From contig JAQWSU010000035.1 in assembly GCA_029243025.1 (NCBI GenBank), forward strand, positions 1 to 35,172: a stretch of DNA of 35,172 bases. Reading direction: 5' to 3'. The translations under genes were made by a program, and so were the position numbers. Shown piece by piece: positions 1-35,172 of this stretch. The stretch comes from Pirellulaceae bacterium (lineage in GTDB: Bacteria > Planctomycetota > Planctomycetia > Pirellulales > Pirellulaceae). Each line of letters begins with the position of its first letter. Position 1 is the first letter of the stretch. The notes beneath the pieces are model-generated. The model made no database searches. It had not been told where the DNA came from and saw only the letters and a program-made list of their open reading frames with translations.

Positions 1-871
1 CGGCCTCACCGGTTTGCGTATCGAAAACCTCCGAAAACAACCTCCAATGAGCATGCTTTTTCAAATATCCGGTCGTTGTTGATGACGAAAGATTAGTCAC
101 ACTGACATCAAGGTCTCGCACCACTTCCGTTTCGGCAATCAATGTCTGCCCATCGACACTGTCTCCAAACGTCACCTCAACGAGTTCGGGTTCTTCGACA
201 TAACTCAACTGAATGTCATCGATCCACATCTTGGCCGGATACCCTATCTCGGGGTCGCTGAAATAGGGTGACAGGTCGACATAAAAGCGAGTAAGAAGTT
301 CCCAGTAATTGCCAGCTGGGCTTGTCGGATTCAGGGTGACCCCACCCGAACCGGACCGTTGGTCCTGCGGAGACTCATTTAAGACGACGTGTATCCAGTC
401 ATCACCCGCCTGGTCATGACGCAATACAAGCTTGTGATAGAAGTGCCAATTGTCTGACTCGACGACTCGGGAACTGTTCTTTCCAGGGTTGTAATGATAG
501 GTGCCGACATCCATCGTGCGATAAATATCCGGATCGGCCGCATACTCACTTCGGAAACCGTCCTCGAAGCGAACCCAAAATTCAAGTCGGTTTGCCTGCA
601 TTCCACGTGGCAGAAAATAACCTTGATCGCTGTTGGATTGGCCAACCCATCCACCATTTTGGATGCCCTGTTTCACCCAAAAACCTGGAAGCCCCATTCC
701 TGCGTCAAGGGATTCCACAAGCAGAGCTTGGCTTCCATTACGGCCTGCGTCCGGAGCGATTGAGAAAACGTTGGCCCCCGAATCACCCTTTGCTTGTACA
801 TGGGCAGCCGCAGTGCCTTGCGGAAACTCAAGCAACCAGTCTGCATCCGGTACTTCAGCCGTTTCAAAATC
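1..871 (-). repeat. Left arm of long inverted repeat
   Basis: The reverse complement of 1-871 aligns without net gaps to 33836-34706, with left plus right coordinates summing to 34707. I count roughly 30 mismatches by eye, about 96-97% identity. Bases 1-128 match perfectly and the match continues to the window edge, so the true arm is probably longer. The arm lies inside the coding body of the surface-protein gene. Confidence 0.9.
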
Positions 872-970
872 CAATAGCGTAAATTGACTCGCAAGCATAC
901 ACCGGGATTCCAATCGCTGAAATTGCCGGGTCACTCTACGCGGGAAAAAGTTGGCACCGATCGCAGACAT
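1..970 (-). CDS. LEPR-XLL-type surface protein, 3' end cut off by window edge
   Basis: The gene reads leftward from ATG at 970 and stays open to base 1, giving about 323 codons without a stop. An in-frame TGA lies three codons upstream of the ATG, so the start cannot be further out. The first ~30 residues hold a LEPR-XLL-like motif (RQFQRLESRCMLAS), the head of many giant planctomycete surface proteins. From the LDFE residues on, the body nearly duplicates the plus-strand gene at the other end of the window and is clearly homologous to the secreted protein at 6640-8211. It is rich in aromatic and beta-strand-like segments (NWHFYHK, WIHVVLNE, MWIDDIQLSYVE), suggesting a jelly-roll, perhaps carbohydrate-binding, fold; that fold is inference. 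The ribosome-binding site is weak (GTGAAAG). The gene probably continues into a much larger repeat protein outside the window. Confidence 0.8.
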   Translation of the reverse strand, partial: MSAIGANFFPRRVTRQFQRLESRCMLASQFTLLDFETAEVPDADWLLEFPQGTAAAHVQAKGDSGANVFSIAPDAGRNGSQALLVESLDAGMGLPGFWVKQGIQNGGWVGQSNSDQGYFLPRGMQANRLEFWVRFEDGFRSEYAADPDIYRTMDVGTYHYNPGKNSSRVVESDNWHFYHKLVLRHDQAGDDWIHVVLNESPQDQRSGSGGVTLNPTSPAGNYWELLTRFYVDLSPYFSDPEIGYPAKMWIDDIQLSYVEEPELVEVTFGDSVDGQTLIAETEVVRDLDVSVTNLSSSTTTGYLKKHAHWRLFSEVFDTQTGEA

Positions 971-1711
971 AGTCTTTCACTAACTTGCAGCAGGCGTTCA
1001 GCTTGGAAAGGGTTCGTTTTACCGACACGAGCATTGTCGAGAGAAGCATCGTCGTTTGACAGGTCCAAAACTCTCTATCAAGATCACAATTCCCCCTCAA
1101 CAAGTCTTCTCGCAACCAAAGCTTATTGAAGCCTAGCTCACATCGCGTCGAGGTCAAATGCCCCCCCCCAATCAGCTTGACTTCAGATCCACACAAATTA
1201 GAGACTCGCTTAACCAGGCGGCCATCTTCCTCTCGTCCCCAATGAGAACTCCCCGCCGGTGAGTTTTAGATCATCTCCCAAACAGCAAGCGGTGACTGCA
1301 CCTGGCAATGACAATCGTGTGCTTGCCAGCGATTCGAGCGATGCTCGATTGGCTGACGATTTACGAATTCCGTCGATCATTGGTTCCCGCGCCAAGGCAA
1401 GAAAAATAAAATCAACCGCAAAATGCGCAACAAGACAAGCGGATCCCCTCAGTCATCTACCACTGAAAGCCCGAACGTGAACCGCACCTTCGTTTTGACA
1501 CGGTCGACGTTTTGCAAACACACCGCCTGACCGAGACTCCGAGGTCGGAGCCATCACTTTTTTCACGGCGTAGCACATTACGAATGATCGTGCCAGACTG
1601 CTCGAGAATGAGTTGGCATTTAAATAGAATTCACTCTAGGTCACAACAAGCTTGCAAGCCGTCATCGATTGCAGATGCAAAGCCTTATTGAAATGCCCAC
1701 CGAAGTTGCTT
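971..1711. other. Non-coding gap between flippase and left surface-protein gene
   Basis: This stretch of about 740 bases lies downstream of the flippase stop and upstream of the left surface-protein gene. Short open frames occur on both strands, but none has a convincing start, domain or composition. It carries a run of nine C at 1161-1169, about 190 bases upstream of the surface-protein ATG. I see no clear hairpin terminator after the flippase, only a short palindrome GCTTGCAAGC near 1650. It presumably holds the promoter of the left surface gene, but I could not place it. Confidence 0.5.
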
Positions 1712-3271
1712 CTAAACATCCTTCAGCACCGTCGTTCTATTAATGAACGACGCAGGAATCAAGCAAGACAACACTATTTGTTTGCTTTCGCTATCCAAAC
1801 AAAAAATAAATATGCTTAAACCGCCGACGAGTCCAACCAAGGCGAATTGCGGAACGAGTTGCAACATTCGATCGACTTCCCAAAGTTGGTTGCATACTAA
1901 GGCAGTGCAAATCGGAAAGACTGCAGCAAGGGCGGCCCACCCGACCACACTCAAAACAAACCTCCGATATGGGATCTCAAATAGCTGGCATGCACCAATC
2001 GGAATGATCAATCCTGAAGCAACAATTTGGGCCATAAGCACCGCCACTGCCATTCCAATCGGACCGTAAAAATAGATCAATATTGAACCGCTCAGAAGCG
2101 TGATGAACGCCTCGGCAATTGCCGCTTTGACGAGCAAATGTAGTTTGTCTGCCCCACGCAGGACAGTTCGCAAACCACGCCCCGGCAGTAGTAAAACATT
2201 CCCCAAGGTAAGAACGCAAAGTACCGGATAGGTTTGGGATTCGTATTCGGGGCCAATCCATACCGCGATGAAGGTCCCACCCAATACGATGAGAGTACCT
2301 GCCGCACAGAGCGACATTGCCAGTAGAATTCGTGTTCCGAGCAGTAGAATCTTCTTGATTGCTTCATGTCTCTCCTGAGCAGCTAATTTGCTTGTGAGAG
2401 GATAGACAACACTGTTGATCCCCCGTCCCAGCTGCAAAAACTTGGTGCTAAACGACTCGGGAATCGAGTAAAAGGGGACGGCAGAGGGTCCGACAATCAG
2501 CCCAACCAACAGCGCTCCTGACCATTCCGTCACACGTCGTGCAATTTGCACGCAGTAGGTAATTCCGCCAAAGCGACAAGACTTGCGGGCGGTTTCTCGA
2601 TCAAAAAACTTAATTGACAGGCTAAAACCATTCAACAATTTTTGAACGATGAGGAAGTAGAGCACCTGCACGACGGTTGTAACAACGAGCGTGACAACCG
2701 CCATCCCAATTAGACCCCAACCATATTTCAATACGATCACCATGCTAACGGCAGTGGTGACCTGCACGCCTACACCGAGGGCATTGCGTATGTCGAATCG
2801 ATGCAGAGCAGTGATTACCGATGAAAACGTCTGTCCTACGAACCCGACTGCAACGGAGCAACCCACCATAAACAGGACATACTGGATTCTCACCGCATCC
2901 TTCACGTCCTGCGTAAGCATCCCCGGCAAAAAGACACTCGCGATCAAGGAGATAAAAACACAGCAAACGGCTAAACCACAGTAGATGTAAAAGGTAGTGA
3001 CAACGACTCGCTCAACTCGGAGACGATCTCCTTTTGCCTCGTACTCAGCGATGTAGCGGACGCCAGCATTCCCCAACCCTATATCAGCCAACGCATAGTA
3101 GCCCGTAAAGGCCATTACAATCGCCCAGATACCGTACCGCTCCTGTCCTAAAGTATGGAGCAGGAACGGCGTCAGGAAGAACGTAATCACAAGCGCACAA
3201 GCTCTACCGATCCAATTGAGCAAAACGCTCCCAATCACCTTTCGTTTCTCAGACACGTTTCCGTCCGCCAT
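1712..3271 (-). CDS. Wzx/MATE-type polysaccharide flippase
   Basis: Multi-spanning membrane protein of about 519 residues with roughly 12-14 hydrophobic segments. It begins with the typical flippase opening (SVLLNWIGR, then TPFLLHTLGQERYGIWAI, then ALADIGLGNAGVRYIAEY). Members of the polysaccharide biosynthesis/MOP superfamily move lipid-linked repeat units across the inner membrane. The longest open frame starts at TTG 3337, but the ATG at 3271 (MADGNVSEKRK) puts the charged N-terminus just before the first membrane helix, so I prefer it. It is the last EPS gene of the minus-strand series, directly after the GT2 gene, and fits a Wzx/Wzy-type pathway with the polymerase-like gene upstream. 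The family is clear; the substrate cannot be read from sequence. Confidence 0.85.
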   Translation of the reverse strand: MADGNVSEKRKVIGSVLLNWIGRACALVITFFLTPFLLHTLGQERYGIWAIVMAFTGYYALADIGLGNAGVRYIAEYEAKGDRLRVERVVVTTFYIYCGLAVCCVFISLIASVFLPGMLTQDVKDAVRIQYVLFMVGCSVAVGFVGQTFSSVITALHRFDIRNALGVGVQVTTAVSMVIVLKYGWGLIGMAVVTLVVTTVVQVLYFLIVQKLLNGFSLSIKFFDRETARKSCRFGGITYCVQIARRVTEWSGALLVGLIVGPSAVPFYSIPESFSTKFLQLGRGINSVVYPLTSKLAAQERHEAIKKILLLGTRILLAMSLCAAGTLIVLGGTFIAVWIGPEYESQTYPVLCVLTLGNVLLLPGRGLRTVLRGADKLHLLVKAAIAEAFITLLSGSILIYFYGPIGMAVAVLMAQIVASGLIIPIGACQLFEIPYRRFVLSVVGWAALAAVFPICTALVCNQLWEVDRMLQLVPQFALVGLVGGLSIFIFCLDSESKQIVLSCLIPASFINRTTVLKDV

Positions 3272-3345
3272 TGATTTACCCACAGAGCGACTTACGTAGA
3301 CTAATGAGATCACGTTCCTGCAAAACGCACTCAGCAATTTAAATT

Positions 3346-4245
3346 TCAGATCAGATTCGGTTCTTGCGTCGATTGATCATTCATAATTTGGTCAATTCGC
3401 CTTTGCACTCTCTTGCTGCTAAGCACAAACCGGTGCTTTCGAAAAAAATAGAGAAGACCGAAAGCATGCAACCAAAGTGATTTGGAGAAGACACCTTTTC
3501 TACTTATTTCTTGGGCATGATGTATAACGGTCACTGCTCCATCGATCAAGACGGTCCTTCCGCTCAACCAGGTTCGAAGGCAATAATCCACGTCCTCAGG
3601 AGCATAGAAAATCTTTTCATCAAGAAGCCCCACCCTCGTGATCAATTCGCGAGAAAAGAGCCAGAAAGCACTACAAGTGTAATCGACTTCCTGGGCCCTC
3701 ACACAATTTCCAAAGCTCGATTCTGCTTCGCGCCGTTCAATGCTTCGCAGGTAGAAATAACGAGCTATTTTTCTTCCTAAAGTTGGAAAGGTGTCGGCTG
3801 ATTTTTGGTAATTACCGCTGGCGAACTGAAGTCTTGGAGAAACGATACCAGCCCGCTCTTGATTCTTAAGTCTATCTAACAGCAATTCGAAGCTGTTTTC
3901 TTGTTGGACCTCAATATCCGAATCGAGGATAGCGACATAGTTTCCCTTGGCTATTCGCAACCCGACATTTCTTGAGAACGTCGTCCCGGTATTGCTTCCG
4001 AGAGGGACGACAGTGAGCGGTAGGCCGGATTCCCGAAGTCGGGCCATCGCTTCCAAAGATCCATCCGTTGAGCCATTGTCGATGACGATATACTCGCGTC
4101 TGAGGCCGGAAGCGTTGAACGCCCCCTCAAGCGATCCAAAAAGACGATCCAAGAATTCAAGTGAATTCCAGGTCAATATGACGCAGCTGACATCCAGGCT
4201 ACTAGATTTTTCTTGCGGGACCGGAGGGCTTTCTAGAGCGTGCAC
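3346..4245 (-). CDS. Family 2 glycosyltransferase
   Basis: A GT-A fold transferase of 299 residues. The N-terminus has the GT2 nucleotide-binding opening (VSCVILTWNS at about 19-28, VIDNGSTDGS at about 54-63), and the metal-binding DSD sits at about 108-110 in AILDSDIEV. The acceptor-side motif APEDVDYCLR is typical of the rhamnosyltransferase-like WcaA/WbbL group. The start appears to be GTG at 4245, only two bases after the TAA of the FemAB-like gene, which implies translational coupling. It presumably adds a sugar to the lipid-linked repeat unit in the cytoplasm. Sugar specificity is unknown. Confidence 0.88.
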   Translation of the reverse strand: MHALESPPVPQEKSSSLDVSCVILTWNSLEFLDRLFGSLEGAFNASGLRREYIVIDNGSTDGSLEAMARLRESGLPLTVVPLGSNTGTTFSRNVGLRIAKGNYVAILDSDIEVQQENSFELLLDRLKNQERAGIVSPRLQFASGNYQKSADTFPTLGRKIARYFYLRSIERREAESSFGNCVRAQEVDYTCSAFWLFSRELITRVGLLDEKIFYAPEDVDYCLRTWLSGRTVLIDGAVTVIHHAQEISRKGVFSKSLWLHAFGLLYFFRKHRFVLSSKRVQRRIDQIMNDQSTQEPNLI

Positions 4246-4247
4246 AA

Positions 4248-5342
4248 TTATGGAATTCCTCGTACGATCATGGGGCCAACCGAGTTAGCAATTGGCAGTG
4301 GCAAACGCCGCCAAATCTTGACAAACCGATCATATTTCCCCGATTCGATCCGCGTATCTTCTACGTTTCCGCGGCGAACATAATGCTGCCAATTCGCCTC
4401 TTCGGGGCACGCTCCCCACTGTTTCTTAAAACGATACGTGGGACTATCGGGACTACTGCGTCCAAAATCAAAACAGTTTTGCTCTCGCTCAATCGCGCGT
4501 TGCAACAATTCCCAATACATTAACATGTTGGCATTTGTCCGGTTGTACGCTCTCAGCGAACTCGCACTCGGCACTTCCGTTGTGCCTTCTCCGTGCAGCA
4601 ACAACGCTCCAGCAATAGGTTTTGCCTCAATGAACCCAAGGCAGAATTCAGCCTGACCTGGCAGTTGCTCTAAAATGGCACGAAAAAGTTTCTTACCAAA
4701 CACAGGCGTACCTAGATCACGCATATTCCTTGTGAAGACGCTATAGAAATCATCTAGTAGCTCATCATTTCCCCACTCGATACGCACATCTTTCTTTTTC
4801 GCATTTCGAACTTGGTTTCTAACCTTGGGCTTGAAGTTATCCCAAAGTTCCGAACGGTGCTTCGGCAAGGGAAGTCGCATATGCACCTTGCTCCGCAAGG
4901 TGTGTTTCAATTGATCATGCGGCTCAAAGTCTTCGTTACGAAGCTGCAAATGCCGAACGCCCGTTTTGTCCGCCAGTTCGACGGCTTGGGTGATCAAACC
5001 TGTTCGCACCTCGCAACTGTCGGCAAGAAAACCACCTGTATTTAAGTAGGGAAGGCTGACCAAATGGGCACCGAACAGGGGACTTTTGACGTGAACTAAC
5101 GGCAAGATCCCGAGACACTGCCCCTCTTTGGTCGCCTCCACACAGTAGGGAGTTTGCCCGAGTCCTTGCTGCAGAATCATCATCCATCTTGGGTGACGAC
5201 TCGCGCTGGAGGATGCTAATTGAGAATACAACGCCTCCCAGTCTCCCATTCGCGATGGAAAACTCGTCCTATCATGGACCCGATATGTAATGGCCCGTTG
5301 TTCGTGTTCCATGTAGTCCACTGGGATTCGTTTTGAACGCAT
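4248..5342 (-). CDS. FemAB-like acyltransferase of the exosortase/PEP-CTERM EPS type
   Basis: Protein of 364 residues resembling the FemAB-related GNAT-fold family repeatedly found in exosortase/PEP-CTERM EPS loci. Recognisable segments are SRHPRWMMILQQGLGQ near the N-terminus, LPLVHVKSPLFG, LPYLNTGGFLAD, the basic stretch KPKVRNQVRNAKKK, and the C-terminal signature FDFGRSSPDSPTYRFKKQWG. FemAB enzymes add amino acids from aminoacyl-tRNA to peptidoglycan peptides. In EPS loci the acceptor is unproven, and aminoacylation of the polysaccharide or a lipid carrier is only a guess. The start is ATG 5342 with a weak ribosome-binding site. The 98-base gap before it shows no promoter or hairpin I could defend. 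Confidence 0.85.
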   Translation of the reverse strand: MRSKRIPVDYMEHEQRAITYRVHDRTSFPSRMGDWEALYSQLASSSASRHPRWMMILQQGLGQTPYCVEATKEGQCLGILPLVHVKSPLFGAHLVSLPYLNTGGFLADSCEVRTGLITQAVELADKTGVRHLQLRNEDFEPHDQLKHTLRSKVHMRLPLPKHRSELWDNFKPKVRNQVRNAKKKDVRIEWGNDELLDDFYSVFTRNMRDLGTPVFGKKLFRAILEQLPGQAEFCLGFIEAKPIAGALLLHGEGTTEVPSASSLRAYNRTNANMLMYWELLQRAIEREQNCFDFGRSSPDSPTYRFKKQWGACPEEANWQHYVRRGNVEDTRIESGKYDRFVKIWRRLPLPIANSVGPMIVRGIP

Positions 5343-5440
5343 TCGCTGGGTCTCTTGGATAATCAGACCATTGTTAGTATTTTATCGACGGGGACCGCAC
5401 ACCAATTTTCCAGGGCCATGATTTCTACAGGGTCATAGTC

Positions 5441-6643
5441 CTAATCCTCGGCGAGTAATTCATCGTAAATGGAGGTAATTCGTTGCATTCGTTTTTGAAA
5501 ACTGTACTTTGACTCAATCGTCGCTCTTGCCTCAGCCCCCAGGTTAAACCTCAATGACTGGTCCGCCAGCAGCTCAGCAGTCTTGAACGTGAGCTCCTCT
5601 TGATTTCCAGATTCAATTAAGAATCCATTCGTGCCGTCTTCAATAATGTTCGGTAATCCTGCGATGCGAGTTGCGACCACAGGAACGCCAAAAGCCATTG
5701 CTTCGAGCACCACGTTCGGCAGCCCCTCTCGCAAGCTGCTGAGTGCGAAAACATCCATCGCCTGATAAAGCGCACTTGTGTCCGCCACAAAACCAGTCAG
5801 CTTTATTCGATCTTCTCTTCCCAAATCAATGACCAGCTTTTGGAGCTCATCGTATTGATTGCCCTCACCAGCGATCAATAAATGTACGTCAATCCTCTCT
5901 CGCAGCAGCTGATCCACGGAGCGAATGAGCATGTCGAATGCTTTTTCTCGCGCCAGACGCCCGATTGCTCCAATTACGAGAGAATTCACGGGTATGCCGA
6001 GTTGTTTTTTTGCGTCGGATGCGGTAATTCGTCGCTTGTACTGTTGGGTATCGATCGCGTTTTCGATCAATGTCACGTTTTTCTGGGGCACACCCAGTCG
6101 CCGGCAATCTGCAAACAGATCTTCCGAAACACAGATCACTCGTTCGTATTTTGGCAGGCAGAAACGGTCAACAGCATAGTACATGCGAGCCCGCATCTCG
6201 GCCGAGACCCACCCATGAACTGTGGTAACGAGTCGCATCGGCCAAAACCGGCGCAGGATCAGTCCCAACAGATTACTTTTGTAGTCGTGTGCGTGCCAGA
6301 TCGTCACATTTTGCTCACGGCAGACTTTCAGACACCGACGAACAATGCTGATATCCTTCAAGCCACGATCATCGATGGCAATGCAGGGCGAGGATGCTTC
6401 CGCCGCTCGTTGCTCCAGTATTTCAAACCCAGGATCTCCAGGCGTTCTCATGAACGCACAGATTCCGTGATAACCGAGATTTGTCAGGAAGCGATGACTA
6501 TTCACTACGGTCTTATCAATTCCGCCCCCTGAACCAACAACCACCCTGGCATGCAAAACCACAGGAAGATCCGCAACAGGTTTATCTTCCGTTGAACAGT
6601 TTGAAATCGTAGTCATTAGATTTGAAGGCATTGTCTTTCTCAT
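5441..6643 (-). CDS. GT4-family glycosyltransferase
   Basis: A GT-B glycosyltransferase of 400 residues. The N-terminal domain has the acceptor-side glycine loop VVGSGGGIDKTV and a WHAHDYKSNLLG segment. The C-terminal Rossmann half has IGAIGRLAREKAFD, LLIAGEGNQYDEL, and the E-x7-E donor motif in EGLPNVVLEAMAFGVPVVA, followed by GLPNIIEDGTNGFLI. This identifies the Glycos_transf_1/GT4 family. Its ATG overlaps the stop of the upstream secreted-protein gene by four bases (ATGA), so the two are translationally coupled. It probably acts in the cytoplasm on the growing repeat unit. Donor and acceptor are unknown. Confidence 0.9.
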   Translation of the reverse strand: MRKTMPSNLMTTISNCSTEDKPVADLPVVLHARVVVGSGGGIDKTVVNSHRFLTNLGYHGICAFMRTPGDPGFEILEQRAAEASSPCIAIDDRGLKDISIVRRCLKVCREQNVTIWHAHDYKSNLLGLILRRFWPMRLVTTVHGWVSAEMRARMYYAVDRFCLPKYERVICVSEDLFADCRRLGVPQKNVTLIENAIDTQQYKRRITASDAKKQLGIPVNSLVIGAIGRLAREKAFDMLIRSVDQLLRERIDVHLLIAGEGNQYDELQKLVIDLGREDRIKLTGFVADTSALYQAMDVFALSSLREGLPNVVLEAMAFGVPVVATRIAGLPNIIEDGTNGFLIESGNQEELTFKTAELLADQSLRFNLGAEARATIESKYSFQKRMQRITSIYDELLAED

Positions 6644-8211
6644 TTCTTGGGATCAACGCGAATCCAACCAATACGAGCGGATGAGTCGTGCAGACCGTTG
6701 CTGGCACGAAACCTAAAACGCCAGACCCCAGTAAACTTTTCCCCTGGATCAAATTGAAACGATCCGCTAAGGGCATCCAACTTCAGGCGAGTGCCAGCTG
6801 GAGGCTCATTCAGGATCGAAAAACGTAACTGCCGACCGTTCCGATCGGCCGCAACCAAAAGACCATCTACCGGCACGCCGGCAGTCGTTCGAATCGAAAT
6901 GCCACCCAGGACATCAACATCAGTATTTGCCCTCGAACCTTGAAACTCCAAACGTACAAACGCACCGCTGTTTGACATGTCCAACGCACCAGAATTGCCA
7001 TAGATGGGGCGCAATTCAAGGTAAGGGTCCGGCATCTCGCCGGTAGCTGGCACGAACAATAAGCCCACGTAAAATGTCCGTCCTGGTTTCATTTTCTTCT
7101 TCAGCGAGACCCGTAGTGATACTTGCCTTGCTTCACCTGGCCGCAGGCTCAACTGCCCTGTAATCGGTCGGCTTGTATCGAAATCCAACAACTCTACCTT
7201 TAGTTGCCGATCGCCGCGAAGTTGGATCTCTCCAGCAACTTTTGAGTGACTGGCATTTTGAATCGTCGCTTGAAGCCAGACGGGCTTGTCAGCAGGCAGA
7301 TTGACCATCTGTCCGGGAACGCAGTTTTCGATCACCACGGTCACATCAGAGGGCTCAACGTATGACAACCGAATGTCATCAACGAACATTCGTACCGGAT
7401 ACGGAATTTCCGGGTCTTGGAAGTAAGGCGTGCAATCGATATACAATCGCGTCAGCAATTCCCAAAAATTGCCATTCGGAGACGTCGGATTGAGAGGAAC
7501 TAACGCTGCAGAACTTCGCTGGTCCTGAGGAACTTGATTCAAGACAACATGAATCCAATTTCCATTTGCACGGTCATGGCGAATCACGAATTTGTAGTAA
7601 AAGTGCCAATTGTTCGACTCAACCACACGGTTGCTTTTCTTGGCCGGATTGTAATGATAGGTTCCCACATCGATCGTCCGATGGATGTCGGCTCGAGCCG
7701 CATATTTTTCACGAAATCCATCATCGAATCGCACCCAGAATTCAAGACGATTCGCGCGGATTCCGCGCGGTAGAAAATAGCCATCATCACCGTTGGATTG
7801 GCCTACAAACCCACGTTTTTTAACTCCCTTCTTAAGCCAAAAACCTGGCAAGCCCATCTGTTGATCACTGGATTGGACCAAGAGAGCGTTTCCCCCGTTA
7901 CGACCTTCTCCGACAGCCAAACTCAAAACGTCCCCGCCACTATCACGTTTTGGCTCGAGAAAAACCCCTGTGAACCCGTCCTCTTGCTTCAACATCCAAT
8001 CTTTGTCGCGCAACTCTTCGCCCTCAAAATCAATGATGTCAAATTGACTTACCACGTCATCGATTGGCGATGCCCCATCAGCGCGAAGAGGTCTAGACAG
8101 CATCACGATCCCAATCGCTAAGCAGATCATAAGTCGGCCTGGCGAAGGCGACCTAAACACGCCGCGAAAACTAGTGATGAAAGACATTTCCATATTTCTT
8201 CGAGCCTTCAT
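6640..8211 (-). CDS. Secreted beta-rich protein, paralogue of the flanking surface proteins
   Basis: Protein of 523 residues with an N-terminal Sec signal (hydrophobic core LMICLAIGIVML, possible cleavage near RADGA). Residues ~55-292 match the bodies of the two surface proteins at the window ends, roughly 60% identical by eye over the best 180 residues. Shared segments include GLPGFW, GYFLPRG, ANRLEFWVRF, DVGTYHYNP, WIHVVLN, PQDQR and LNPTSP. The C-terminal ~60 residues look like a cadherin/He_PIG-type Ig-like unit (LDALSGSFQFDPGEKFTGVWRF). Unlike the flanking copies it has no LEPR motif and no long repeat tail, so it looks like a stand-alone exported version. The ATG has a GAGGTAA ribosome-binding site. 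It sits between the SufS-like gene and a GT4 that it overlaps by four bases, implying a role tied to the EPS. I infer polysaccharide binding; nothing here proves it. Confidence 0.85.
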   Translation of the reverse strand: MKARRNMEMSFITSFRGVFRSPSPGRLMICLAIGIVMLSRPLRADGASPIDDVVSQFDIIDFEGEELRDKDWMLKQEDGFTGVFLEPKRDSGGDVLSLAVGEGRNGGNALLVQSSDQQMGLPGFWLKKGVKKRGFVGQSNGDDGYFLPRGIRANRLEFWVRFDDGFREKYAARADIHRTIDVGTYHYNPAKKSNRVVESNNWHFYYKFVIRHDRANGNWIHVVLNQVPQDQRSSAALVPLNPTSPNGNFWELLTRLYIDCTPYFQDPEIPYPVRMFVDDIRLSYVEPSDVTVVIENCVPGQMVNLPADKPVWLQATIQNASHSKVAGEIQLRGDRQLKVELLDFDTSRPITGQLSLRPGEARQVSLRVSLKKKMKPGRTFYVGLLFVPATGEMPDPYLELRPIYGNSGALDMSNSGAFVRLEFQGSRANTDVDVLGGISIRTTAGVPVDGLLVAADRNGRQLRFSILNEPPAGTRLKLDALSGSFQFDPGEKFTGVWRFRFRASNGLHDSSARIGWIRVDPKK

Positions 8212-8262
8212 TTACCTCAGTCGAATATCAAGCAACTTGGCAATGACAACTACAAACAAAAA

Positions 8263-9480: not shown

Positions 9481-9590
9481 AGCATTTCCTAGTTAAACTC
9501 AATGGATACCGCCTTTAATTTGGACAAACCCAACAACAACTACCGTTCAACGGTCCAGGCACTTGGCAGAATGGAAGTGCTCACACTTCC

Positions 9591-11045: not shown

Positions 11046-11102
11046 TAAAATAAATCATTCAAACCCGAGGATCGCGGCAAACCGATTGAGCAACGTAAGG
11101 AG

Positions 11103-12296: not shown

Positions 12297-12311
12297 AAAT
12301 CACCTACATCT

Positions 12312-14291: not shown

Positions 14292-14480
14292 TTGTCTTCT
14301 CCTGATTCCATCTCGTTCTCTTCAGACTGAAATCGACGGTAACTAACCGTAAGGATTCAAAGCGAACCTATAGGACGATTCAATCACCGACAAAACTCGA
14401 CTTGTCACTCTCCCGAAACAACAACACTCATTGAATTCCCCAAGAAGCCGTACCCATTGCTTAGCGATCACAAGATCTCG

Positions 14481-15359: not shown

Positions 15360-15430
15360 AATTTTCCCGAAAACGTTTTCTAATCATCTGCTGGACTGCT
15401 AGGCGGTGCGTAAATATACGACAAGATCCA

Positions 15431-19484: not shown

Positions 19485-19579
19485 GAAAGAAAGCCTTGAG
19501 AACCAATTAAGGGAGGAATGGGGAAACGATCAGGCATGAATCGCATTGCTTAGTTTAGAATGCGCTCCATTGAGTACCA

Positions 19580-20734: not shown

Positions 20735-20972
20735 CAATCTTCATCAAATTCACAAGAACCAGCGAAATCTATCCGCAAAATTGACGGTACAACGAGAGTC
20801 CCGTCGTTCTAACAACTCTTGGTCATTTGTGGTAGCAAGATGCAGGAATTCGTCGTTGGAGTGGATATTTCAGAAATCCGAACCCGCACAACCGTAAACA
20901 TTTGAGGGCGGGAATCGAAGAATCGATCACTAATTCCTGACAGCGGCTGGTAGATTTCCGCAAAAAAGACGC

Positions 20973-21740: not shown

Positions 21741-21761
21741 TGAATTTCTCCGCGACTAGTT

Positions 21762-26879: not shown

Positions 26880-26927
26880 GTCTGCCCCCAAATCCGCTGA
26901 ATCTACTTAAGGCGGTCTTTCGTTCCA

Positions 26928-29129
26928 CTATGCATTCACATACTCATACTGTCCGTAAGCCGCAACATACTGCCGCTTTGGAACTCCATTCACCACGACA
27001 CCAATCGGATTGTGAAAAACTTTTTGAATTCGTCTTCTCACCTGGGACATTTGAGCCATGCGACTGTATCCACAACGCACGCAAATCAAGGCGACATCGG
27101 ATCGGCAGGTAAACAAAAGAGATTCGCCGGCGGCGAGAATTGGTGGAGTATCGATCACGATGTACCGATATCGCTTGCGAAGTTCGATCATCAGCTCATC
27201 GATCGATTGCTTCTGTAACAAAGCATGCAAATCTCGTGGCTGAAGGCCTGAGGTCAAAACGTCGAGATTCCGATCTACCGAGGCAACGATGGCATCATTT
27301 ACGGTACAATTCCCATGGAACACATCGAGCAACCCCCAATCCGTCTCGACCCCCAACATGCGGCTAATGTCGGGCGACCGAAAGTCGGTCTCCATTAGCA
27401 GTACAGGCTCCTTGGAAGACCTCGCCAAGCTGAGGGCCAGCTGGGTTGACACATGCGTCTTACCTTCACCAGAAATCGCACTTACAACAGAGATCACCTG
27501 CGCATCCGAGAGTTGTGGTGAGAGACGAAGATTGTTGCAAAGATGATCAACACTTTCCTCGAACAAAGTTGGCGGATTTCCGGCGTTCTCCTTTTGGGAT
27601 GGTGTCGGCAAATACTTCGGTAAAACCGCAATCTCACCAAGAACTTCAACTTGATGCTCCTGCACACGAGCGGAATCCGTCACACGTTGCACAAAGAACT
27701 CGTAGAGCACGACAAAACCAAGCGGCACCATTAACGCACCGAAACAACCAACACCAATCGACGCCCAAGGGCTAGCGACTGCTCTGGTCGGAAGAATTGC
27801 TTCATCAACAAGCTCAACTCGGGCTGGAGCAAATTGTTCCGTTCGCAAAGTCACAATTCGCGAAGAAATCTGCTCGTAAACTGCCTCGTGACGCTGCAAT
27901 TCATTTTTCGCAAACTCAAGCTCAAGCTGATCGGCATTGGCATCTCCGCGAACACCCCTTTGCCTGACAACCTTTTTGTCCAGATAATCTCGAATCGCTT
28001 CTTTCTGTAGGATCTCTTCTTCAACATCTCTTAAAAGCTGACTCCGGTTGCCGTTCAGCTGGCTCAGAATCGCTTCTCGCCCAGATTTTTTGAATTCAGC
28101 CTGGTGGTTGGCAATCTTTTCGTCGATCTCAGCCGCCTGCTTTTTCATTTCTTGATAGCGGTCCGAGTTGGTCGGATCAACAAAGGCTGCTTCCCATTGA
28201 CTCAATCTCTCCGCGATCTCTTTTTTTAATTTCTGCAGATCCTGGTAACCTGTTTGGGTTTGATAATAAGTCTTCAAATCTGCCTCCGACACTTCAACCG
28301 GATTCGCATTCAAATGCTGGTTCAAAGCATGCTTTCGGGCCTTCGCGACTTCGATATCTACTTCTGTACGAACCAGCAAATCCTGAATCGACTGCATTGG
28401 ATCCAACGGATCTTGGACCGAATCAGTTCCGTGGATTGCAGCCACCGATCGCCCCAGTTTTTGAACATTCTTTCGCAATTCCTGCAGTGTCACCTCGCGG
28501 CGATCTTTCTCTTCCTGGAGCAATTCAACCATCGCACGCTCATATCGCTTGCCATAGTCTCGATGATAAGTCATGTAAGAATTAACTACCGCTTGCACCA
28601 CATCTTTTGCAGCCAATGGATTTGTGTCTGTGAATTGAACGCGTACAAGCTCCGATTTCGACACGAGGTTGACTCGCAAATTGGTTTGGACCCATCGAAA
28701 CGGGTCTTCATTTTTTGCGATCTCGGGGAACTTCTTGTAAAGCCCCGAAAGAGCAGGGGCAACGACGGCACGGGTCCCAAATAGGTTCAACTGTGTGCTG
28801 ACGAACTGACTGGAATCTTCCTTCTGATAGACCAAACGCGGAGCGCGACTCTTGATTCGTAGCACAGAAGAGGCAACATACTCCGGCTTGATGGCGTACC
28901 AGAGGACAAGCCCCAGACCGGAAGCTAAAACGATTCCAATAGGAATCGTGACCTTCCACCACCGAACCTGTGCCGACCAGACAAGCCGCAGATACTGCAA
29001 AATCTTATCGCTCTCGCTGGACTCACTTCCAGGGCCAGGACCGTACGCGGAAGAACTCGGTCGACCAACGACAAGATCCGCTTGAGCATTCCGGTTTGTC
29101 AAGGCCTGCTTCGGAGGGTATTTTGTCAT
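26928..29129 (-). CDS. Wzz-type chain-length regulator fused to BY-kinase
   Basis: Protein of 733 residues. A Wzz domain spans two membrane helices (about 58-80 and 455-478), with a long charged coiled-coil region between them. The cytoplasmic bacterial tyrosine kinase domain has Walker A GEGKT (554-558), Walker A' METDFR (579-584) and Walker B VIDTPP (658-663). The C-terminal tyrosine cluster (Y721, 725, 728, 730 in QYVAAYGQYEYVNA) is the autophosphorylation tail. Such proteins control polymer length by cycles of oligomerisation and phosphorylation. One oddity is Glu580 in place of the usual first Asp of Walker A'. ATG 29129 has a GAGG box. The proline/serine-rich first 45 residues are cytoplasmic and disordered-looking. 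Confidence 0.93.
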   Translation of the reverse strand: MTKYPPKQALTNRNAQADLVVGRPSSSAYGPGPGSESSESDKILQYLRLVWSAQVRWWKVTIPIGIVLASGLGLVLWYAIKPEYVASSVLRIKSRAPRLVYQKEDSSQFVSTQLNLFGTRAVVAPALSGLYKKFPEIAKNEDPFRWVQTNLRVNLVSKSELVRVQFTDTNPLAAKDVVQAVVNSYMTYHRDYGKRYERAMVELLQEEKDRREVTLQELRKNVQKLGRSVAAIHGTDSVQDPLDPMQSIQDLLVRTEVDIEVAKARKHALNQHLNANPVEVSEADLKTYYQTQTGYQDLQKLKKEIAERLSQWEAAFVDPTNSDRYQEMKKQAAEIDEKIANHQAEFKKSGREAILSQLNGNRSQLLRDVEEEILQKEAIRDYLDKKVVRQRGVRGDANADQLELEFAKNELQRHEAVYEQISSRIVTLRTEQFAPARVELVDEAILPTRAVASPWASIGVGCFGALMVPLGFVVLYEFFVQRVTDSARVQEHQVEVLGEIAVLPKYLPTPSQKENAGNPPTLFEESVDHLCNNLRLSPQLSDAQVISVVSAISGEGKTHVSTQLALSLARSSKEPVLLMETDFRSPDISRMLGVETDWGLLDVFHGNCTVNDAIVASVDRNLDVLTSGLQPRDLHALLQKQSIDELMIELRKRYRYIVIDTPPILAAGESLLFTCRSDVALICVRCGYSRMAQMSQVRRRIQKVFHNPIGVVVNGVPKRQYVAAYGQYEYVNA

Positions 29130-29195
29130 GAAAACCTCAACTGCACATTGTCAATTACTCGTGTCGTTACAAGCTGTGTTGGCACCACACCAAGG

Positions 29196-30182
29196 TCACT
29201 CCTCAGGCCCAGAGACGCTAGGTCGCCGAGCTTCTCGGAAAAATTCGCTGGCTTCCACTACCGATTCCTCAGGGAAGACTTTCCCAATCACCCAAAGCAT
29301 GAGACACAGTAATGCTCCGGCAAATGGAACCATCAAAAATCCTGCAAAGTCGTGCGAAAACTTTTTTGCAGCCTCGCTTCCCATCTGTTCGTACAAGAGG
29401 CACGTGCCGACAATACGCGTCACATTCGCCAAAACCGCCACAGGCAGCACAGCCAGCATGACAAGGCCACTGGCCAACCAAGTTCGTTTTGCGACGACAA
29501 GCAACGCAAACGCAAACGCAGCAATTCCGAAGAAAATACGAATCCCCGAACATGCTTCTTCCACACCAAAACGCTCGTCCCCGATGCGAATAACATTCGC
29601 CTCTGCAATTGCCGGCTGCCCAAGAATCACAAGGACTGACGTACTGATTTCCGTAGCAACCCGCTGCAGTGGCATCCGCAGAGCAACTTCTGCGACGTAC
29701 GGAAGTGGAATCGCAAACCAAAGGAAACAAATGGATGGCAAACACCACCAAAGCAGATGCCTTCCCCCCAACGCCAGAACGATACCAGCGAGCCAGAGAA
29801 GGATTGTCCAATTCTCGACCGGAGTGTAGAAGTAGTATCCGGCAACATACCGAATGGCAAGTGCGGCGATTACAGTGAGGCCCCCAGCGAAAAGCTCCGG
29901 TTGAACCAAATCTTTCGGAAAGGAACTACGGTTCAGATAAAGAAAAATTAGGCTGATTGGCAAGACCAAATACCCATGCGAGTAATCGGGCTCAGTCTCC
30001 CAGATATTGACAAATTCAACGAGGCTTGGCCAATATGACCAACCGCCGATCGCTAAGAGCACAAGCCCACACAACATCGGCAGACCTGCTCCCATACCTC
30101 GTCGTCCCTCGTCAGATTGAACCACCTCAGGCGGCTTAACGGGCGATTTCTTTTTAGCGTGTGCCTTCTGTTTACTAGTCAT
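29196..30182 (-). CDS. Exosortase (EpsH/Xrt family)
   Basis: Integral membrane transpeptidase-like protein of 328 residues with about eight membrane helices. The active-site residues of the family are present: Cys211 in EEACSGIRIFFG, Arg256 in ANVTRIVGT and His277 in FSHDFAGF. Exosortases recognise PEP-CTERM tails and process them at the inner membrane so the protein can be delivered to the surface or EPS. The basic, lysine-rich N-terminus is cytoplasmic. No EpsI domain is fused; EpsI is encoded separately downstream. The gene starts three bases after the deacetylase stop (TAA-GGG-ATG). The exact Xrt subtype (XrtA or a planctomycete-specific type) cannot be fixed by eye. Confidence 0.93.
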   Translation of the reverse strand: MTSKQKAHAKKKSPVKPPEVVQSDEGRRGMGAGLPMLCGLVLLAIGGWSYWPSLVEFVNIWETEPDYSHGYLVLPISLIFLYLNRSSFPKDLVQPELFAGGLTVIAALAIRYVAGYYFYTPVENWTILLWLAGIVLALGGRHLLWWCLPSICFLWFAIPLPYVAEVALRMPLQRVATEISTSVLVILGQPAIAEANVIRIGDERFGVEEACSGIRIFFGIAAFAFALLVVAKRTWLASGLVMLAVLPVAVLANVTRIVGTCLLYEQMGSEAAKKFSHDFAGFLMVPFAGALLCLMLWVIGKVFPEESVVEASEFFREARRPSVSGPEE

Positions 30183-30185
30183 CCC

Positions 30186-31079
30186 TTATCGCCCCGCCAC
30201 GCATGGAGTCGCCAACTGACTATCATGTTGGATGGTTGTTGTTATTTCTTGCTCACCAACGACGTCGCTGATACGACCAAACCGAAAGTTCGCGAGTAGC
30301 AAGTCTAGCTTAGACTCCGTGCTGTGGAGATTAACGTAGTGGCGAAAACGCGTGAGCCTACTGCCTAATTTCACCCGAGGTTGTTGTGGGTCAAGCTCCC
30401 AAGGATGAAGGTAAAATACAAAGGGTCGACCTTCGGCGTTCACTCGCTTCAACAAATTAATCGTAGCGGCCAGTGGGAATAAACGAAAATAACCGCCACC
30501 CGAAACAGGCACATTCCAGAGACCCCGACGACAGACCGTCATCGGAAACTCTTTAATTAATCCACTTGGCGTCGAAATTTGGTGCATTCCTAAGGGTGAA
30601 TCACTGAACCCGTAGCGGTCATGAAAGCTCGTCGGGAATAAACTTGAATCTACCTCAAACCCCTCTTCGACCAAGATCTCGAAAGCCCAAGTATTCGCCG
30701 GAGTGATGGAAAAACTAGGAGCGCGAAAACTTGAGACGGCCCCTCCTATCACCTGTTCCAGAACGTTTTTTGATCTTCGAAGATCGGCTCGAAACTCCTC
30801 GGGCGTCTGCTGGTAAATCAACCTATGCCAGTATGTATGAGAACCGATTTCGTGTCCAGAATTATAAATCCTTCGCACGAGCGATGGAAAACGCTCCGCT
30901 ATCCATCCGAGCACAAAAAAGGTTGCCTTGACGTTGTGCGAATCGACCAAATCCAAAAAGCGGCTGGTTGACTCTTCAACCCGACAGTCAAAATCCGCCC
31001 AATCGGAACGTTTCACTCCGGACTCGAAGCCCGTCACTTGGAAATAGTCCTCAACATCTATTGAAAGTGCGTTTTTCAA
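30186..31079 (-). CDS. Polysaccharide deacetylase of PEP-CTERM/exosortase loci, TTG start
   Basis: A NodB-fold deacetylase of 297 residues with the C-terminal extension typical of the PEP-CTERM-locus subfamily. Catalytic and metal residues are visible: the DVED motif (D8, D11) in ALSIDVEDYFQV, H81 and H85 in EIGSHTYWH, R119 in FRAPSFS, and H225 in FYLHPWELD. It removes N- or O-acetyl groups from EPS sugars; location and substrate are unproven. The start must be TTG 31079, because an in-frame TAG lies six codons upstream with no ATG or GTG between, and the family N-terminus begins exactly here. It is the first gene after the hairpin terminator and so probably opens the EPS operon. Confidence 0.93.
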   Translation of the reverse strand: MKNALSIDVEDYFQVTGFESGVKRSDWADFDCRVEESTSRFLDLVDSHNVKATFFVLGWIAERFPSLVRRIYNSGHEIGSHTYWHRLIYQQTPEEFRADLRRSKNVLEQVIGGAVSSFRAPSFSITPANTWAFEILVEEGFEVDSSLFPTSFHDRYGFSDSPLGMHQISTPSGLIKEFPMTVCRRGLWNVPVSGGGYFRLFPLAATINLLKRVNAEGRPFVFYLHPWELDPQQPRVKLGSRLTRFRHYVNLHSTESKLDLLLANFRFGRISDVVGEQEITTTIQHDSQLATPCVAGR

Positions 31080-31533: not shown

Positions 31534-31564
31534 CTAGTTAACTTTCTTATCGCCAAATCTTGAC

Positions 31565-32260
31565 TTAACGATTACGTCGAACACGAGCGACACACGCACC
31601 AAGGCAGGCGAGCAATCCCCAAACTACGAAGGTAGCTGGCTCTGGCACGGCAGCGGCGGTCGTTGTGTGTGTCCACGAACCTGCCGAAGCAGCGCCCAAG
31701 ACGAAGTCTGTCGAGTTGGAGAGCTCGAATGCCGGATCTCCAGTTCGAGTAGCACTGAAGTTTGACGCGTCACTTTGCACATCACCACCAGTCAAGTTAC
31801 TGAGGGTGACTGCACTTGAGCTAGTACCATCAAGCGAACTTGTTTGCGAAGCGCTGATCTCTCCATCCAACCCAGTAACAGCCAACTGATTGGACACACT
31901 GTAGATGTTACCGACATTACCCGGTCCAGTGTAAGTGTCGTCTGAAGCAACAAAGGTGAAAGATGTTCCTATGTTCGAAGCAATCTGGATATTGGTTTCG
32001 GTCAGCCTAGCTAAAGCAGTCGTTTGAGAAGAAGTAGCGGTCGTGTTTAACGTGTCCACGTCGACCACTCCGAGTGATACCCACGTAGCTGTCGACACAT
32101 ACATCGAACCAGCGATCGGGTCAAAGTCGCCCGCGCCATTATCTAACACGGTGTACGCTGGACCACCCTGCGTGATAGAAACCTGCAACGAAGCATCGGA
32201 CTTTTGGACAAAAGCCACAGCCAGAGCAACAGTCAAACAAACAATAATTTTCTTAGACAT
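31565..32260 (-). CDS. PEP-CTERM sorting-signal protein
   Basis: Secreted protein of 231 residues. A Sec signal (IIVCLTVALAVAFV, probable cleavage at SDA-S) is followed by a low-complexity Ser/Thr/Asp/Gly-rich body without cysteines. The C-terminus is a textbook PEP-CTERM tail: VPEPAT at about 205-210, then the hydrophobic helix FVVWGLLACLGACVA, then RVRRNR. It is the obvious local substrate of the exosortase encoded downstream. The AGAGGG ribosome-binding site supports the ATG at 32260. It probably becomes a surface or EPS-matrix protein, and the Thr/Ser-rich body may be glycosylated (inference). It follows the small secreted-protein gene by 56 bases and is closed by the hairpin terminator. 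Confidence 0.93.
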   Translation of the reverse strand: MSKKIIVCLTVALAVAFVQKSDASLQVSITQGGPAYTVLDNGAGDFDPIAGSMYVSTATWVSLGVVDVDTLNTTATSSQTTALARLTETNIQIASNIGTSFTFVASDDTYTGPGNVGNIYSVSNQLAVTGLDGEISASQTSSLDGTSSSAVTLSNLTGGDVQSDASNFSATRTGDPAFELSNSTDFVLGAASAGSWTHTTTAAAVPEPATFVVWGLLACLGACVARVRRNR

Positions 32261-32316
32261 TTCAAAAACCCTCTAATAAACATTAATCACAACTTTTTAA
32301 TTACAAAAGATCAAAA

Positions 32317-32724: not shown

Positions 32725-32862
32725 ATATCTAGCTCTTTCCTCTTAATTCGAATTTCCAGTATGACTGATCAAAACCATCACTTCAAGTCACTAAATCTTT
32801 TTTTTGGGGGGTGGAAATCATGCAGCCTGCTACTCCATAACTTCCTTCGCTACTCACAAATC

Positions 32863-32894
32863 CGGACAGCACCAACAACTCGGAACAGCACCAA
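32863..32894. repeat. Pair of short direct repeats
   Basis: CGGACAGCACCAA at 32863-32875 and CGGAACAGCACCAA at 32881-32894 differ by one inserted base and are spaced about 18 bases start to start. They lie about 140-170 bases upstream of the small secreted-protein gene and could be a tandem regulator site. Chance is possible. Confidence 0.3.
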
Positions 32895-33201
32895 GCGACC
32901 CGCCCAGGGCCTGAAAACCAGGGGGCATAGGCAAAATAGAGGCTCTTCTCGCCACACGCCACGACTTGGGCTTTGAACCGCGTTAAAAGAAACAAACACC
33001 GTCCTGCGGCTAGCTGGATTTTGGCGACCAAGGTTGCCTCAGATTCTTTTCCAGCTTACCCACCGCAAGCTGAACCTAGACACTGCAATACGGGCGCGAC
33101 CAAAATGCCGGCGCGACCGTTGGACAACCAGGCAGATCAGCACTGAGATCCATTAAGGCAAAACATACGGCGATTCCGCGGGCGCAAGACGGTCCCCATG
33201 A

Positions 33202-33215
33202 GGGGGGCGGGGGGG
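33202..33215 (+). repeat. G6-C-G7 homopolymer tract
   Basis: Six G, one C and seven G in a row in non-coding DNA, midway between the two divergent genes. Such tracts can slip during replication or form a quadruplex. No function is shown. Confidence 0.6.
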
Positions 33216-33750
33216 TATTTTCTCTGGACAAGGAAAAACATGCCAATGCCTCAACACGCTGACAATTCAATACTGTCTCATGGCTTTTAGAAAGATTCAG
33301 AATCAGCTGAGTGACTGGCAAATCAGCAGCGGAAGACAAAGCCACCGTCGAATTTGGCATTGAGCGATGAACAGTTGGCTCCGACATCCGATCGTAACTC
33401 ATTCGTGACATCGATCCCCGTGAGACTTCGGGACACTCGTAAAACTTTGGATGCGGCTCGAAGTTGATCGAAAATGCCCGACGTTGGGCTTGAGGTTCAT
33501 CGCCCACGGACCGGTGACTGGAGGTTTGGTTTTATTCCCCCTATACTACTGGGCCGTCTCCATCAATGGGGCCGATTCAAAATAACTCATCCTCGTCGTT
33601 TCGATCAACGCGCCATTGCAGGGGAAACGATCCACTGCCTCGAGCAACAACTGTAGCGGCTGCCACGCAGCTTGCTTTTCTCGACAGAACTAAAAGGGCA
33701 TCAGTCGACAACTGTGCACTCGTCTTCACAAGGCGAGGAAGAAAACAGCA

Positions 33751-35172
33751 AATGTCTAAGCGCAACCTTGCCATCGAATCATTGGAGAAGCGGACCGTTC
33801 TCTCAGGAGCGACTCTGACATCGTACAGCATCTTGGATTTTGAAGTCGACAAGGTACCGGATGCAGACTGGTTGCTTGAGTCTCCGCGAGACACTGCGTC
33901 TGCCTATGTACAAGCAAAGGGCGATTCGGGGGCCAATGTTTTCTCAATCGCTCCGGGCGCAGGCCGTAATGGAAGCCAAGCTCTGCTTGTGGAATCCCTT
34001 GACGCAGGAATGGGGCTTCCAGGTTTCTGGGTCAAACAGGGCATTCAAAATGGTGGATGGGTTGGCCAATCGAACAGCGATCGAGGTTATTTTCTGCCAC
34101 GTGGAATGCAGGCAAACCGACTTGAATTTTGGGTTCGCTTCGAGGACGGTTTCCGAAGTGAGTATGCGGCCGATCCGAATATTTCTCGCACGATGGATGT
34201 CGGCACCTATCATTACAACCCTGGAAAGAACAGTTCCCGAGTCGTCGAGTCAGACAATTGGCACTTCTATCACAAGCTTGTATTGCGTCATGACCAGGCG
34301 GGTGATGACTGGATACACGTCATCTTGAATGAGTCTCCGCAGGACCAACGGACTGGTTCGGGTGGGGTCACCCTGAATCCGACAAGCCCAGCTGGTAATT
34401 ACTGGGAACTTCTTACTCGCTTTTATGTCGACCTGTCACCCTATTTCAGCGACCCCGAGATAGGGTATCCGGCCAAGATGTGGATCGATGACATTCAGTT
34501 GAATTACGTCGAAGAACCCGAACTCGTCGAGGTGACGTTTGGAGACAGCGTCGATGGGCAGATAGTGATTGCCAAACCTGAAGTGGTGCGAGACCTTGAT
34601 GTCAGTGTGACTAATCTTTCGTCATCAACAACGACCGGATATTTGAAAAAGCATGCTCATTGGAGGTTGTTTTCGGAGGTTTTCGATACGCAAACCGGTG
34701 AGGCCGTTGACTACTTGACACTTGAGCCTCAGGAAACGCGTGATCTGACCTTTCGGATCAACCCCAATTCAATGGCCCTGGGGACATCTCACCGAGTCGG
34801 CTTGGTGTTTGTGCCTAACGGTGCCCCCACACCACGGGCCATCTCGACCAATGACGCTAACGTCGAACTCGACAATATCTATCCATACAGTGGTCCTGCT
34901 GACGGAAATTTGTTTGGTGGATTTCAAAATGTGAGAATCCAAGCCGAACTCGAAAACGCTCCACCAATCGTGCAGGGAGGAATTAATTTTGAATCAACCA
35001 TCAACAGTTCGTTTCAAGGGGTTTTGCCGGCTAGTGACAGCGACGAAGACTCCCTGACTTATTCGTTGCTCGAGCATTCCGACACGGGCGCCATTTCGCT
35101 CGATCCGCAGACAGGCGTCTTCAATTTCATTCCACAAACTGACTTTGAGGGTATCTTCCGATTTCGGTATCT
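33751..35172 (+). CDS. LEPR-XLL-type surface protein, 3' end cut off by window edge
   Basis: Open from ATG 33751 to the right edge, 474 codons without a stop. GAGGAAG lies about ten bases before the ATG. The head MSKRNLAIESLEKRTVLSGA carries a LEPR-XLL-like motif (L-E-x-R-x-x-L-S). Residues ~30-255 form the beta-rich domain shared with the left-edge gene (near-identical) and the secreted protein at 6640-8211. The following part holds an Ig/cadherin-like unit (LTYSLLEHSDTGAISLDP, TGVFNFIPQTDFEG, FRFRY). In planctomycetes such heads start very large, repeat-rich extracellular proteins, so much more probably follows outside the window. It is the only convincing plus-strand gene here and diverges from the EPS locus. 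Function is inferred as adhesin or EPS-binding. Confidence 0.85.
33836..34706 (+). repeat. Right arm of long inverted repeat
   Basis: Matches the reverse complement of 1-871 without net gaps, at about 96-97% identity by eye. Two long blocks are perfectly identical: 34186-34321 and 34579-34706. The match starts at the codons for LDFE, just after the LEPR-like head, and runs to the point opposite base 1. Sequence beyond 34706 has no partner in this window only because the left copy is cut off. Confidence 0.9.

What the first reader, a model, noticed from the sequence alone, without database searches (positions are those of the whole stretch)
1..35172. Near-identical inverted repeats in two outward-facing surface genes bracket the whole EPS locus
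Bases 1-871 and 33836-34706 are inverted copies at about 96-97% identity, with perfect blocks of 128 and 136 bp. Arms of this length are ample for RecA-dependent recombination, which would invert the ~33 kb between them. Inversion would leave every EPS gene intact but exchange promoter plus LEPR head between the two large surface proteins. It would be a reversible switch in which the EPS cluster itself is the invertible segment. The geometry is seen directly; the switching is inference.
Basis: partly seen in the sequence, partly recalled or inferred. Interest (0 to 1): 0.72.

Follow-up and report, generated by a model that had tools for sequence, protein, structure and literature searches.

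The report
Mirrored surface genes bracket slime locus
Two large surface-protein genes at either end of a bacterial slime-making gene cluster share a nearly identical stretch in mirror orientation that appears to have exchanged sequence recently, so the whole cluster could flip, although no flipping has been seen.

Summary
Window 1-874 and 33833-34706 are 96% identical inverted copies in two outward-facing genes. It is also incomplete: the window is one whole contig (C35), and both ends lie inside the repeat. The first 127 bp match 34580-34706; the last 141 bp match the start of contig C45 and the end of contig C5. The simplest reading is that 34580-35172 is a collapsed two-copy segment, giving arms of about 1.39 kb whose near-identical part adjoins a 4%-divergent part, a mark of recent exchange between arms. 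Each head can read in frame into either tail: Ig repeats plus dockerin-like (C45), or Ig plus FG-GAP (C5). The assembly is blind to orientation; gene order in the one same-genus genome favours right head to C45. That genome repeats the plan with an unrelated module: three copies, one stand-alone inside its EPS locus and two in bracketing surface genes, but diverged and in direct orientation. Best account: surface proteins bordering the locus carry copies of its own module; here the copies form a recombination-competent inverted repeat. Inversion is plausible and testable; a dedicated switch is unproven. Analogues: Campylobacter fetus sap, Lactobacillus acidophilus slp.

The parts
1..874 (-). 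left inverted arm, cut by the contig end at base 1
   Evidence: contig end
33833..34706 (+). right inverted arm, part directly comparable with the left arm (96%)
34580..35172 (+). inferred collapsed two-copy part of the arms: its first 127 bp equal window 1-127 and its last 141 bp equal the ends of contigs C5 and C45
2..970 (-). left surface gene, N-terminal part (LESR-type leader by eye, head domain); tail lies on another contig
33566..35170 (+). right surface gene, N-terminal part (in-frame ATG also at 33752; LEKR-type leader by eye, head domain, Ig-like domain); tail lies on another contig
6640..8211 (-). third copy of the head-plus-Ig module, stand-alone protein of 523 aa, overlapping the next glycosyltransferase gene by 4 bases (6640-6643)
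1712..22415 (-). polysaccharide genes: flippase-like, glycosyltransferases, FemAB/GNAT, aminotransferase V, asparagine synthase, two sulfotransferase-like, Wzy-like, sugar transferase, EpsI-like; ORF 9591-11045 had no Pfam match at 0.01
22497..31079 (-). TPR protein, Wzc-like ATPase, exosortase (29196-30182), polysaccharide deacetylase
31565..32260 (-). PEP-CTERM-type protein (C-terminal signal seen by eye; the one NCBIfam match is weak, 12.9 bits against a cut-off of 100)
971..1711 (.). upstream region of the left gene; no homology to the right gene's upstream region beyond 14 bp at E 0.35
32725..33565 (.). upstream region of the right gene; promoter-like matches no more than in shuffles

Best explanation
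A head-plus-Ig module, which also exists as a stand-alone protein inside the EPS gene cluster, was copied so that it now begins two surface genes at the two ends of an exosortase/EPS locus in mirror orientation, forming arms of about 1.39 kb. The plan of one stand-alone copy plus two bracketing surface genes recurs in the sister genome with an unrelated module, so the duplication probably serves the locus (for instance, both surface proteins bind or act on its polysaccharide). Here the two copies have exchanged sequence recently by homologous recombination (gene conversion and/or crossover). A crossover would invert about 33 kb, leave the main EPS ORFs whole and exchange the tails (Ig repeats plus dockerin-like, or Ig plus FG-GAP) between two promoter-plus-leader ends. 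Shown: geometry, contig overlaps, in-frame compatibility, the two tails, recA, the three-copy plan in two genomes. Inferred: that both arms pass through the collapsed segment, that the near-identity is recent exchange, RecA dependence, that inversion occurs at a low, unregulated rate, polysaccharide binding, and that the prevailing order is right head to C45 and left head to C5.
For: Inverted pair. Two heads and two tails share one segment assembled once: 34580-35172 occurs once in full in the genome, while its ends occur at C35:1-127, C45:1-141 and C5:95145-95285. Difference density is 29 in 714 bp, but the collapsed 593 bp can hide only a few: P about 6e-7 for 4 or fewer and 3e-11 for none at that density (4 is my bound if unseen differences must lie farther apart than about 127 bp). 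Both arms have the same codon phase and both tails continue the frame. Tails: FG-GAP_3 2.5e-30; Big_9 1.5e-33 plus Dockerin_1 1.1e-4, the last 22.7 bits against a cut-off of 22.9. recA on C14 at 435.8 bits. The head module matches at 3 places, all on C35, and in no other of 392 phylum genomes. In G001 an unrelated 687-aa module protein lies inside the EPS locus; its two parts recur in both bracketing genes (47-50% and 40-42%), at no other place in G001 and nowhere in G000. Orientation: in G001, orthologues of C45's neighbours (66%, 63%, 44%) lie beside the Ig-dockerin bracketing gene on the deacetylase/exosortase side, and that gene is the C45 tail's best match in G001.
Against: No reads, no second strain and no inverted assembly were available. 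The collapsed segment is inferred, and bubble removal in the assembler could hide some differences. Contig overlaps are 127 bp on one side and 141 bp on the other, not one clean k-mer length. Gene conversion alone explains the identity without any inversion. In G001 the two bracketing genes are on the same strand and show no DNA match at E 1e-3, so nothing shows selection for inversion. The three-copy plan rests on two genomes; 5 exosortase regions of four more distant relatives did not show it, apart from one unexamined protein pair in G030. C5 has no shared gene order with the G001 stretches tested, and its tail's best single match in G001 is on contig C25.
Confidence: 0.6

Rival explanations
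1. A dedicated phase switch: the EPS locus inverts often and reversibly, placing one or the other surface-protein tail behind a strong promoter, and is kept by selection as in Campylobacter fetus sap.
For: Outward-facing genes with a shared in-frame 5' part and different tails; non-homologous upstream regions; inferred recent inter-arm exchange.
Against: Both genes have their own long upstream regions, so neither is evidently silent; promoter-like matches do not exceed shuffles. The sister genome keeps the three-copy plan without an inverted repeat. No orientation data.
Confidence: 0.15
2. A static pair: the locus's own module was copied onto two surface genes and homogenised by gene conversion; the locus does not invert to any relevant extent.
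For: The third copy inside the cluster and the G001 set, whose bracketing genes share 670 aa at 54% on the same strand, show that such sharing occurs without an inverted repeat. Differences in the arms are spread over both copies: the third copy agrees with left at 13, right at 15 and neither at 8 of 36 sites.
Against: Inverted arms of about 1.4 kb in a recA genome are expected to cross over at some rate unless the product is selected against (general knowledge).
Confidence: 0.3
3. Assembly artefact: one arm is a chimera or a strain variant of the other.
For: Both contig ends lie in the repeat; the assembly is a 60-contig draft.
Against: 36 differences, distinct leaders and upstream sequence, and two different tails on contigs of 95 kb and 1.14 Mb point to two genomic copies.
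Confidence: 0.05

Closest known systems
Campylobacter fetus sap (S-layer) locus
   Same: Surface-protein genes varied by inversion of a segment carrying a promoter. [quoted passage not shown] Shared conserved 5' ends, the RecA role and sapCDEF secretion genes inside the segment are recalled.
   Different: There inversion is established and one promoter serves silent genes (partly recalled). Here two genes each have their own upstream region, the segment is about 33 kb with EPS and exosortase genes, and inversion is not shown.
Lactobacillus acidophilus slpA/slpB segment
   Same: Two surface-protein genes interchanged by chromosomal inversion; passages seen in PMC7858073 and PMC6176008.
   Different: There one gene is active and one silent, and inversion was observed; here neither is known.
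PEP-CTERM/exosortase EPS loci (PMC1569441; passages seen)
   Same: Exosortase, EpsI-like, Wzc-like, TPR, deacetylase, sugar transferase and PEP-CTERM-type genes together.
   Different: Bracketing by surface genes that share a module was not mentioned in the passages seen; the full paper was not read.

Membership tests
Recombination-driven surface-protein inversion system (sap/slp type) | oppositely oriented surface genes sharing a long near-identical 5' part | tested here: met
Recombination-driven surface-protein inversion system (sap/slp type) | different 3' parts that can be joined in frame to either 5' part | tested here: met
   the junctions themselves are inferred from contig overlaps
Recombination-driven surface-protein inversion system (sap/slp type) | both orientations found in a population or among strains | not testable with these tools
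   no reads; only 2 genomes of the genus held, and the other lacks this module
Recombination-driven surface-protein inversion system (sap/slp type) | expression depends on position relative to one promoter | not testable with these tools
   promoter scans do not exceed shuffles
Site-specific DNA invertase system | recombinase gene next to short inverted sites | tested here: not met
   no recombinase among the 24 main window ORFs scanned, 21 with Pfam and 3 with NCBIfam alone; small ORFs, e.g. 33076-33507, not scanned; arms are long coding repeats
Exosortase/PEP-CTERM EPS locus | exosortase | tested here: met
   TIGR02602 111.1 bits, cut-off 105.55
Exosortase/PEP-CTERM EPS locus | EpsI-type partner | tested here: inconclusive
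   TIGR02914 30.9 bits, below cut-off 42.8
Planctomycete LEPR-type extracellular protein | Planc_extracel N-terminal motif | tested here: inconclusive
   14.1 bits on the right gene, cut-off 25.5; none on the left gene

The most novel reading that the evidence does not exclude
In this genus an exosortase/EPS locus carries a module of its own in three copies: one stand-alone protein inside, and two surface proteins that guard the ends. Lineages replace the module wholesale, an Ig-linked head here and a beta-helix-like module in the sister genome, while keeping the plan. In this strain the two end copies are mirrored and near-identical, so the whole EPS and protein-sorting locus becomes a RecA-invertible segment that swaps dockerin-type and FG-GAP-type tails between two promoters.
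Probability: 0.2. Interest if true: 0.68.

Novelty: new variant of a known kind. Interest (0 to 1): 0.5.

Why it matters
If the locus flips, surface-protein variation in what looks like an environmental planctomycete (inferred) would follow the logic of S-layer switching in Campylobacter and Lactobacillus, but with a whole polysaccharide and protein-sorting locus as the moving part. Even if it does not flip, two sister genomes show unrelated modules in the same three-copy plan at the EPS locus and nowhere else in those genomes, a strong hint that border surface proteins carry a part matched to the polysaccharide. It also shows that a draft assembly can break exactly where such a switch would be visible.

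Tried and rejected
Structure prediction of the module gave poor models: pLDDT 34.2 for one sequence and 43.4 with pTM 0.51 for an alignment of four. A Foldseek search of the second model had 625 matches at E <= 10 and 0 at E <= 0.001 and is not used. A profile search of PDB sequences had no match at E <= 1. Orientation by strain comparison failed because only one other genome of the genus is held and it lacks this module. Anchoring C5 in that genome failed: no shared gene order with the C39 or C25 stretches. Five 80-kb exosortase regions of four single-contig relatives gave no inverted pair of 200 bp or more at 90% or more; the longest was 227 bp at 80.6%, in G011. One protein pair spans the exosortase in G030's second region (43% over 236 columns, not examined further); the other four regions had none at the cut-offs used. 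None had the C45 neighbour genes at E <= 1e-25. Promoter scans were uninformative. Pfam also lists TcdB_toxin_midN on the C5 tail (40.6 bits, cut-off 24.8, no stretch passing alone); I take it as a cross-match of FG-GAP repeats. Paper searches: planctomycetes with phase variation and inverted repeats gave 3 papers, listing only, none visibly on this; some searches were listings used for context.
Full report
What is there. The window holds one long inverted pair, 1-874 and 33833-34706, 96% identical. Each arm is the 5' coding part of a gene reading outward off the sequence. Between them I count 22 main ORFs, all on the minus strand. They include a flippase-like protein, glycosyltransferases, two sulfotransferase-like proteins, a Wzy-like protein, a sugar transferase, a Wzc-like ATPase, a large TPR protein, a deacetylase, an exosortase (TIGR02602 above cut-off), an EpsI-like protein (below cut-off) and a PEP-CTERM-type protein. 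A third copy of the arm-encoded module, 523 aa, is gene 6640-8211, which overlaps the next glycosyltransferase gene by four bases.

The window is all of contig C35 of a draft genome of 60 contigs and 8.35 Mb. Both ends stop inside the repeat. Bases 1-127 are identical to 34580-34706, and position 128 is the first difference. The last 141 bases are identical to the first 141 of contig C45 and to the last 141 of contig C5 (reverse). C45 and C5 differ at 3 of the next 52 bases and then have nothing in common. No other place in the genome matches these stretches at E <= 0.001, apart from the third copy. Two upstream ends and two downstream ends around one segment assembled once is what a short-read assembly gives for a two-copy repeat. 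I therefore infer that both genes pass through 34580-35172 and that the arms are about 1.39 kb (1340 + 52). The overlap lengths, 127 and 141, are not one clean k-mer size, so the assembler's exact behaviour is unexplained.

Recent exchange between the arms. In the comparable part, 29 differences lie in 714 bp beyond the ragged boundary. At that density 593 bp would hold about 24. Copies that differ so much should not collapse into one path, and I take at most about four hidden differences as possible (P about 6e-7; none, 3e-11). This points to gene conversion or crossover between the two copies. The caveat is that the second copy of this segment has not been read directly. Of the 36 differences, 11 lie in synonymous and 25 in non-synonymous codons. 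The third copy agrees with the right arm at 15, the left at 13 and neither at 8, so neither arm looks like the decayed one.

What an inversion would do. Homology stops near the start of the head domain. Leaders and upstream regions differ: the only plus-strand similarity found upstream is 14 bp at E 0.35. The arms have the same codon phase, and both tails continue that frame. A crossover would thus leave the main EPS ORFs intact and exchange the tails: 969 aa on C45 with Ig-like repeats and a dockerin-like end (Dockerin_1 at 22.7 bits, just under its 22.9 cut-off), and 527 aa on C5 with Ig and FG-GAP repeats (lengths include the shared 46-47 residues). A recA gene is present. No site-specific recombinase was seen among the 24 main ORFs scanned.

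Orientation. The assembly itself does not say which tail follows which head. The only other genome of the genus held, G001, has an EPS locus with matching core genes on contigs C37 and C39, whose ends overlap by 14 kb at 99.8%. There, orthologues of genes near the C45 tail (66%, 63% and 44% identity) lie on the deacetylase/exosortase side, beside a surface gene with a LEPR-like leader (by eye), Ig repeats and a dockerin-like end. That gene is the best match of the C45 tail in G001. This supports right head to C45 as the ancestral order. The C5 side is weaker: a LEPR-like FG-GAP gene lies at the far end of the G001 locus (44% over 323 columns), but the C5 tail's best single match is on contig C25, and C5 shares no gene order with either stretch.

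The same plan in the sister genome, with another module. In G001 the two bracketing genes share 670 aa at 54% identity. Inside the EPS locus a stand-alone protein of 687 aa (L056 4853-6916, overlapping the preceding ORF by four bases) carries the same two parts in swapped order: 50% and 40% identity to the C37 gene, 47% and 42% to the C39 gene. These are the only three loci of that module in G001, and G000 has none. Conversely, the head module of the window has three copies, all on C35, and G001 matches only its Ig-like part. The two modules show no sequence similarity beyond chance (best E 0.089); Pfam gives the G001 module only a sub-threshold Beta_helix match (17.4 bits, cut-off 25.9). So two related loci each hold one stand-alone copy and two bracketing surface-gene copies of a module of their own. 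In G001 the two bracketing genes are on the same strand, with no DNA match at E 1e-3, so inversion by them is not expected. This favours shared function, perhaps matching the locus's polysaccharide, as the reason for the copies, and makes the inverted repeat here a consequence that may or may not be used. It is two genomes only; four more distant relatives did not clearly show the plan.

How rare the module is. With the head alignment, 1 of 392 phylum genomes matched, the own one. With the whole right protein, 4 of 40 genomes matched including the own one, and the three others matched only in the Ig-like part. In the genome-contig scan, 66 stretches matched a pattern and 1 encoded a relative, 36% identical, on a MAG labelled Gammaproteobacteria; records of the own or a very near genome may be left out there. 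No fold could be assigned.

Verdict. The recombination potential is strong and recent exchange is likely. Inversion itself is unobserved, and a dedicated switch is one of several readings. By function the nearest systems are the Campylobacter fetus sap and Lactobacillus acidophilus slp segments. For those I saw only a title, a naming passage and passages of later papers; the RecA and sapCDEF details are recalled.

Noticed in passing
window 31502-31533: A perfect 32-bp palindrome between the deacetylase and PEP-CTERM-type genes, perhaps a terminator hairpin.
   Followed up: no
G000 C5, about 71574-92852 (L014 2-12784 is part): Next to the C5 tail lies an open frame of about 7,093 aa on the same strand with a LEERILL leader, a giant surface protein.
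   Followed up: no
L056 4853-6916, L053 10569-14354, L056 19109 to L057 2846: G001 carries its own, unrelated module in three copies at its EPS locus, with the two parts in swapped order in the stand-alone protein.
   Followed up: partly
L053 14536-15285 and 16228-16968: In G001 two tandem PEP-CTERM-type genes, in repeats 82% identical in DNA, stand where this window has two different small secreted-type genes.
   Followed up: no
L053/L054 and L055: G001 contigs C37 and C39 overlap by 14 kb at 99.8%, an unmerged overlap at its EPS locus, possibly strain variation.
   Followed up: no
L019 7522-8712: A distant relative of the head domain in a stand-alone 396-aa protein with no Pfam match, on a MAG contig labelled Gammaproteobacteria.
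   Followed up: partly
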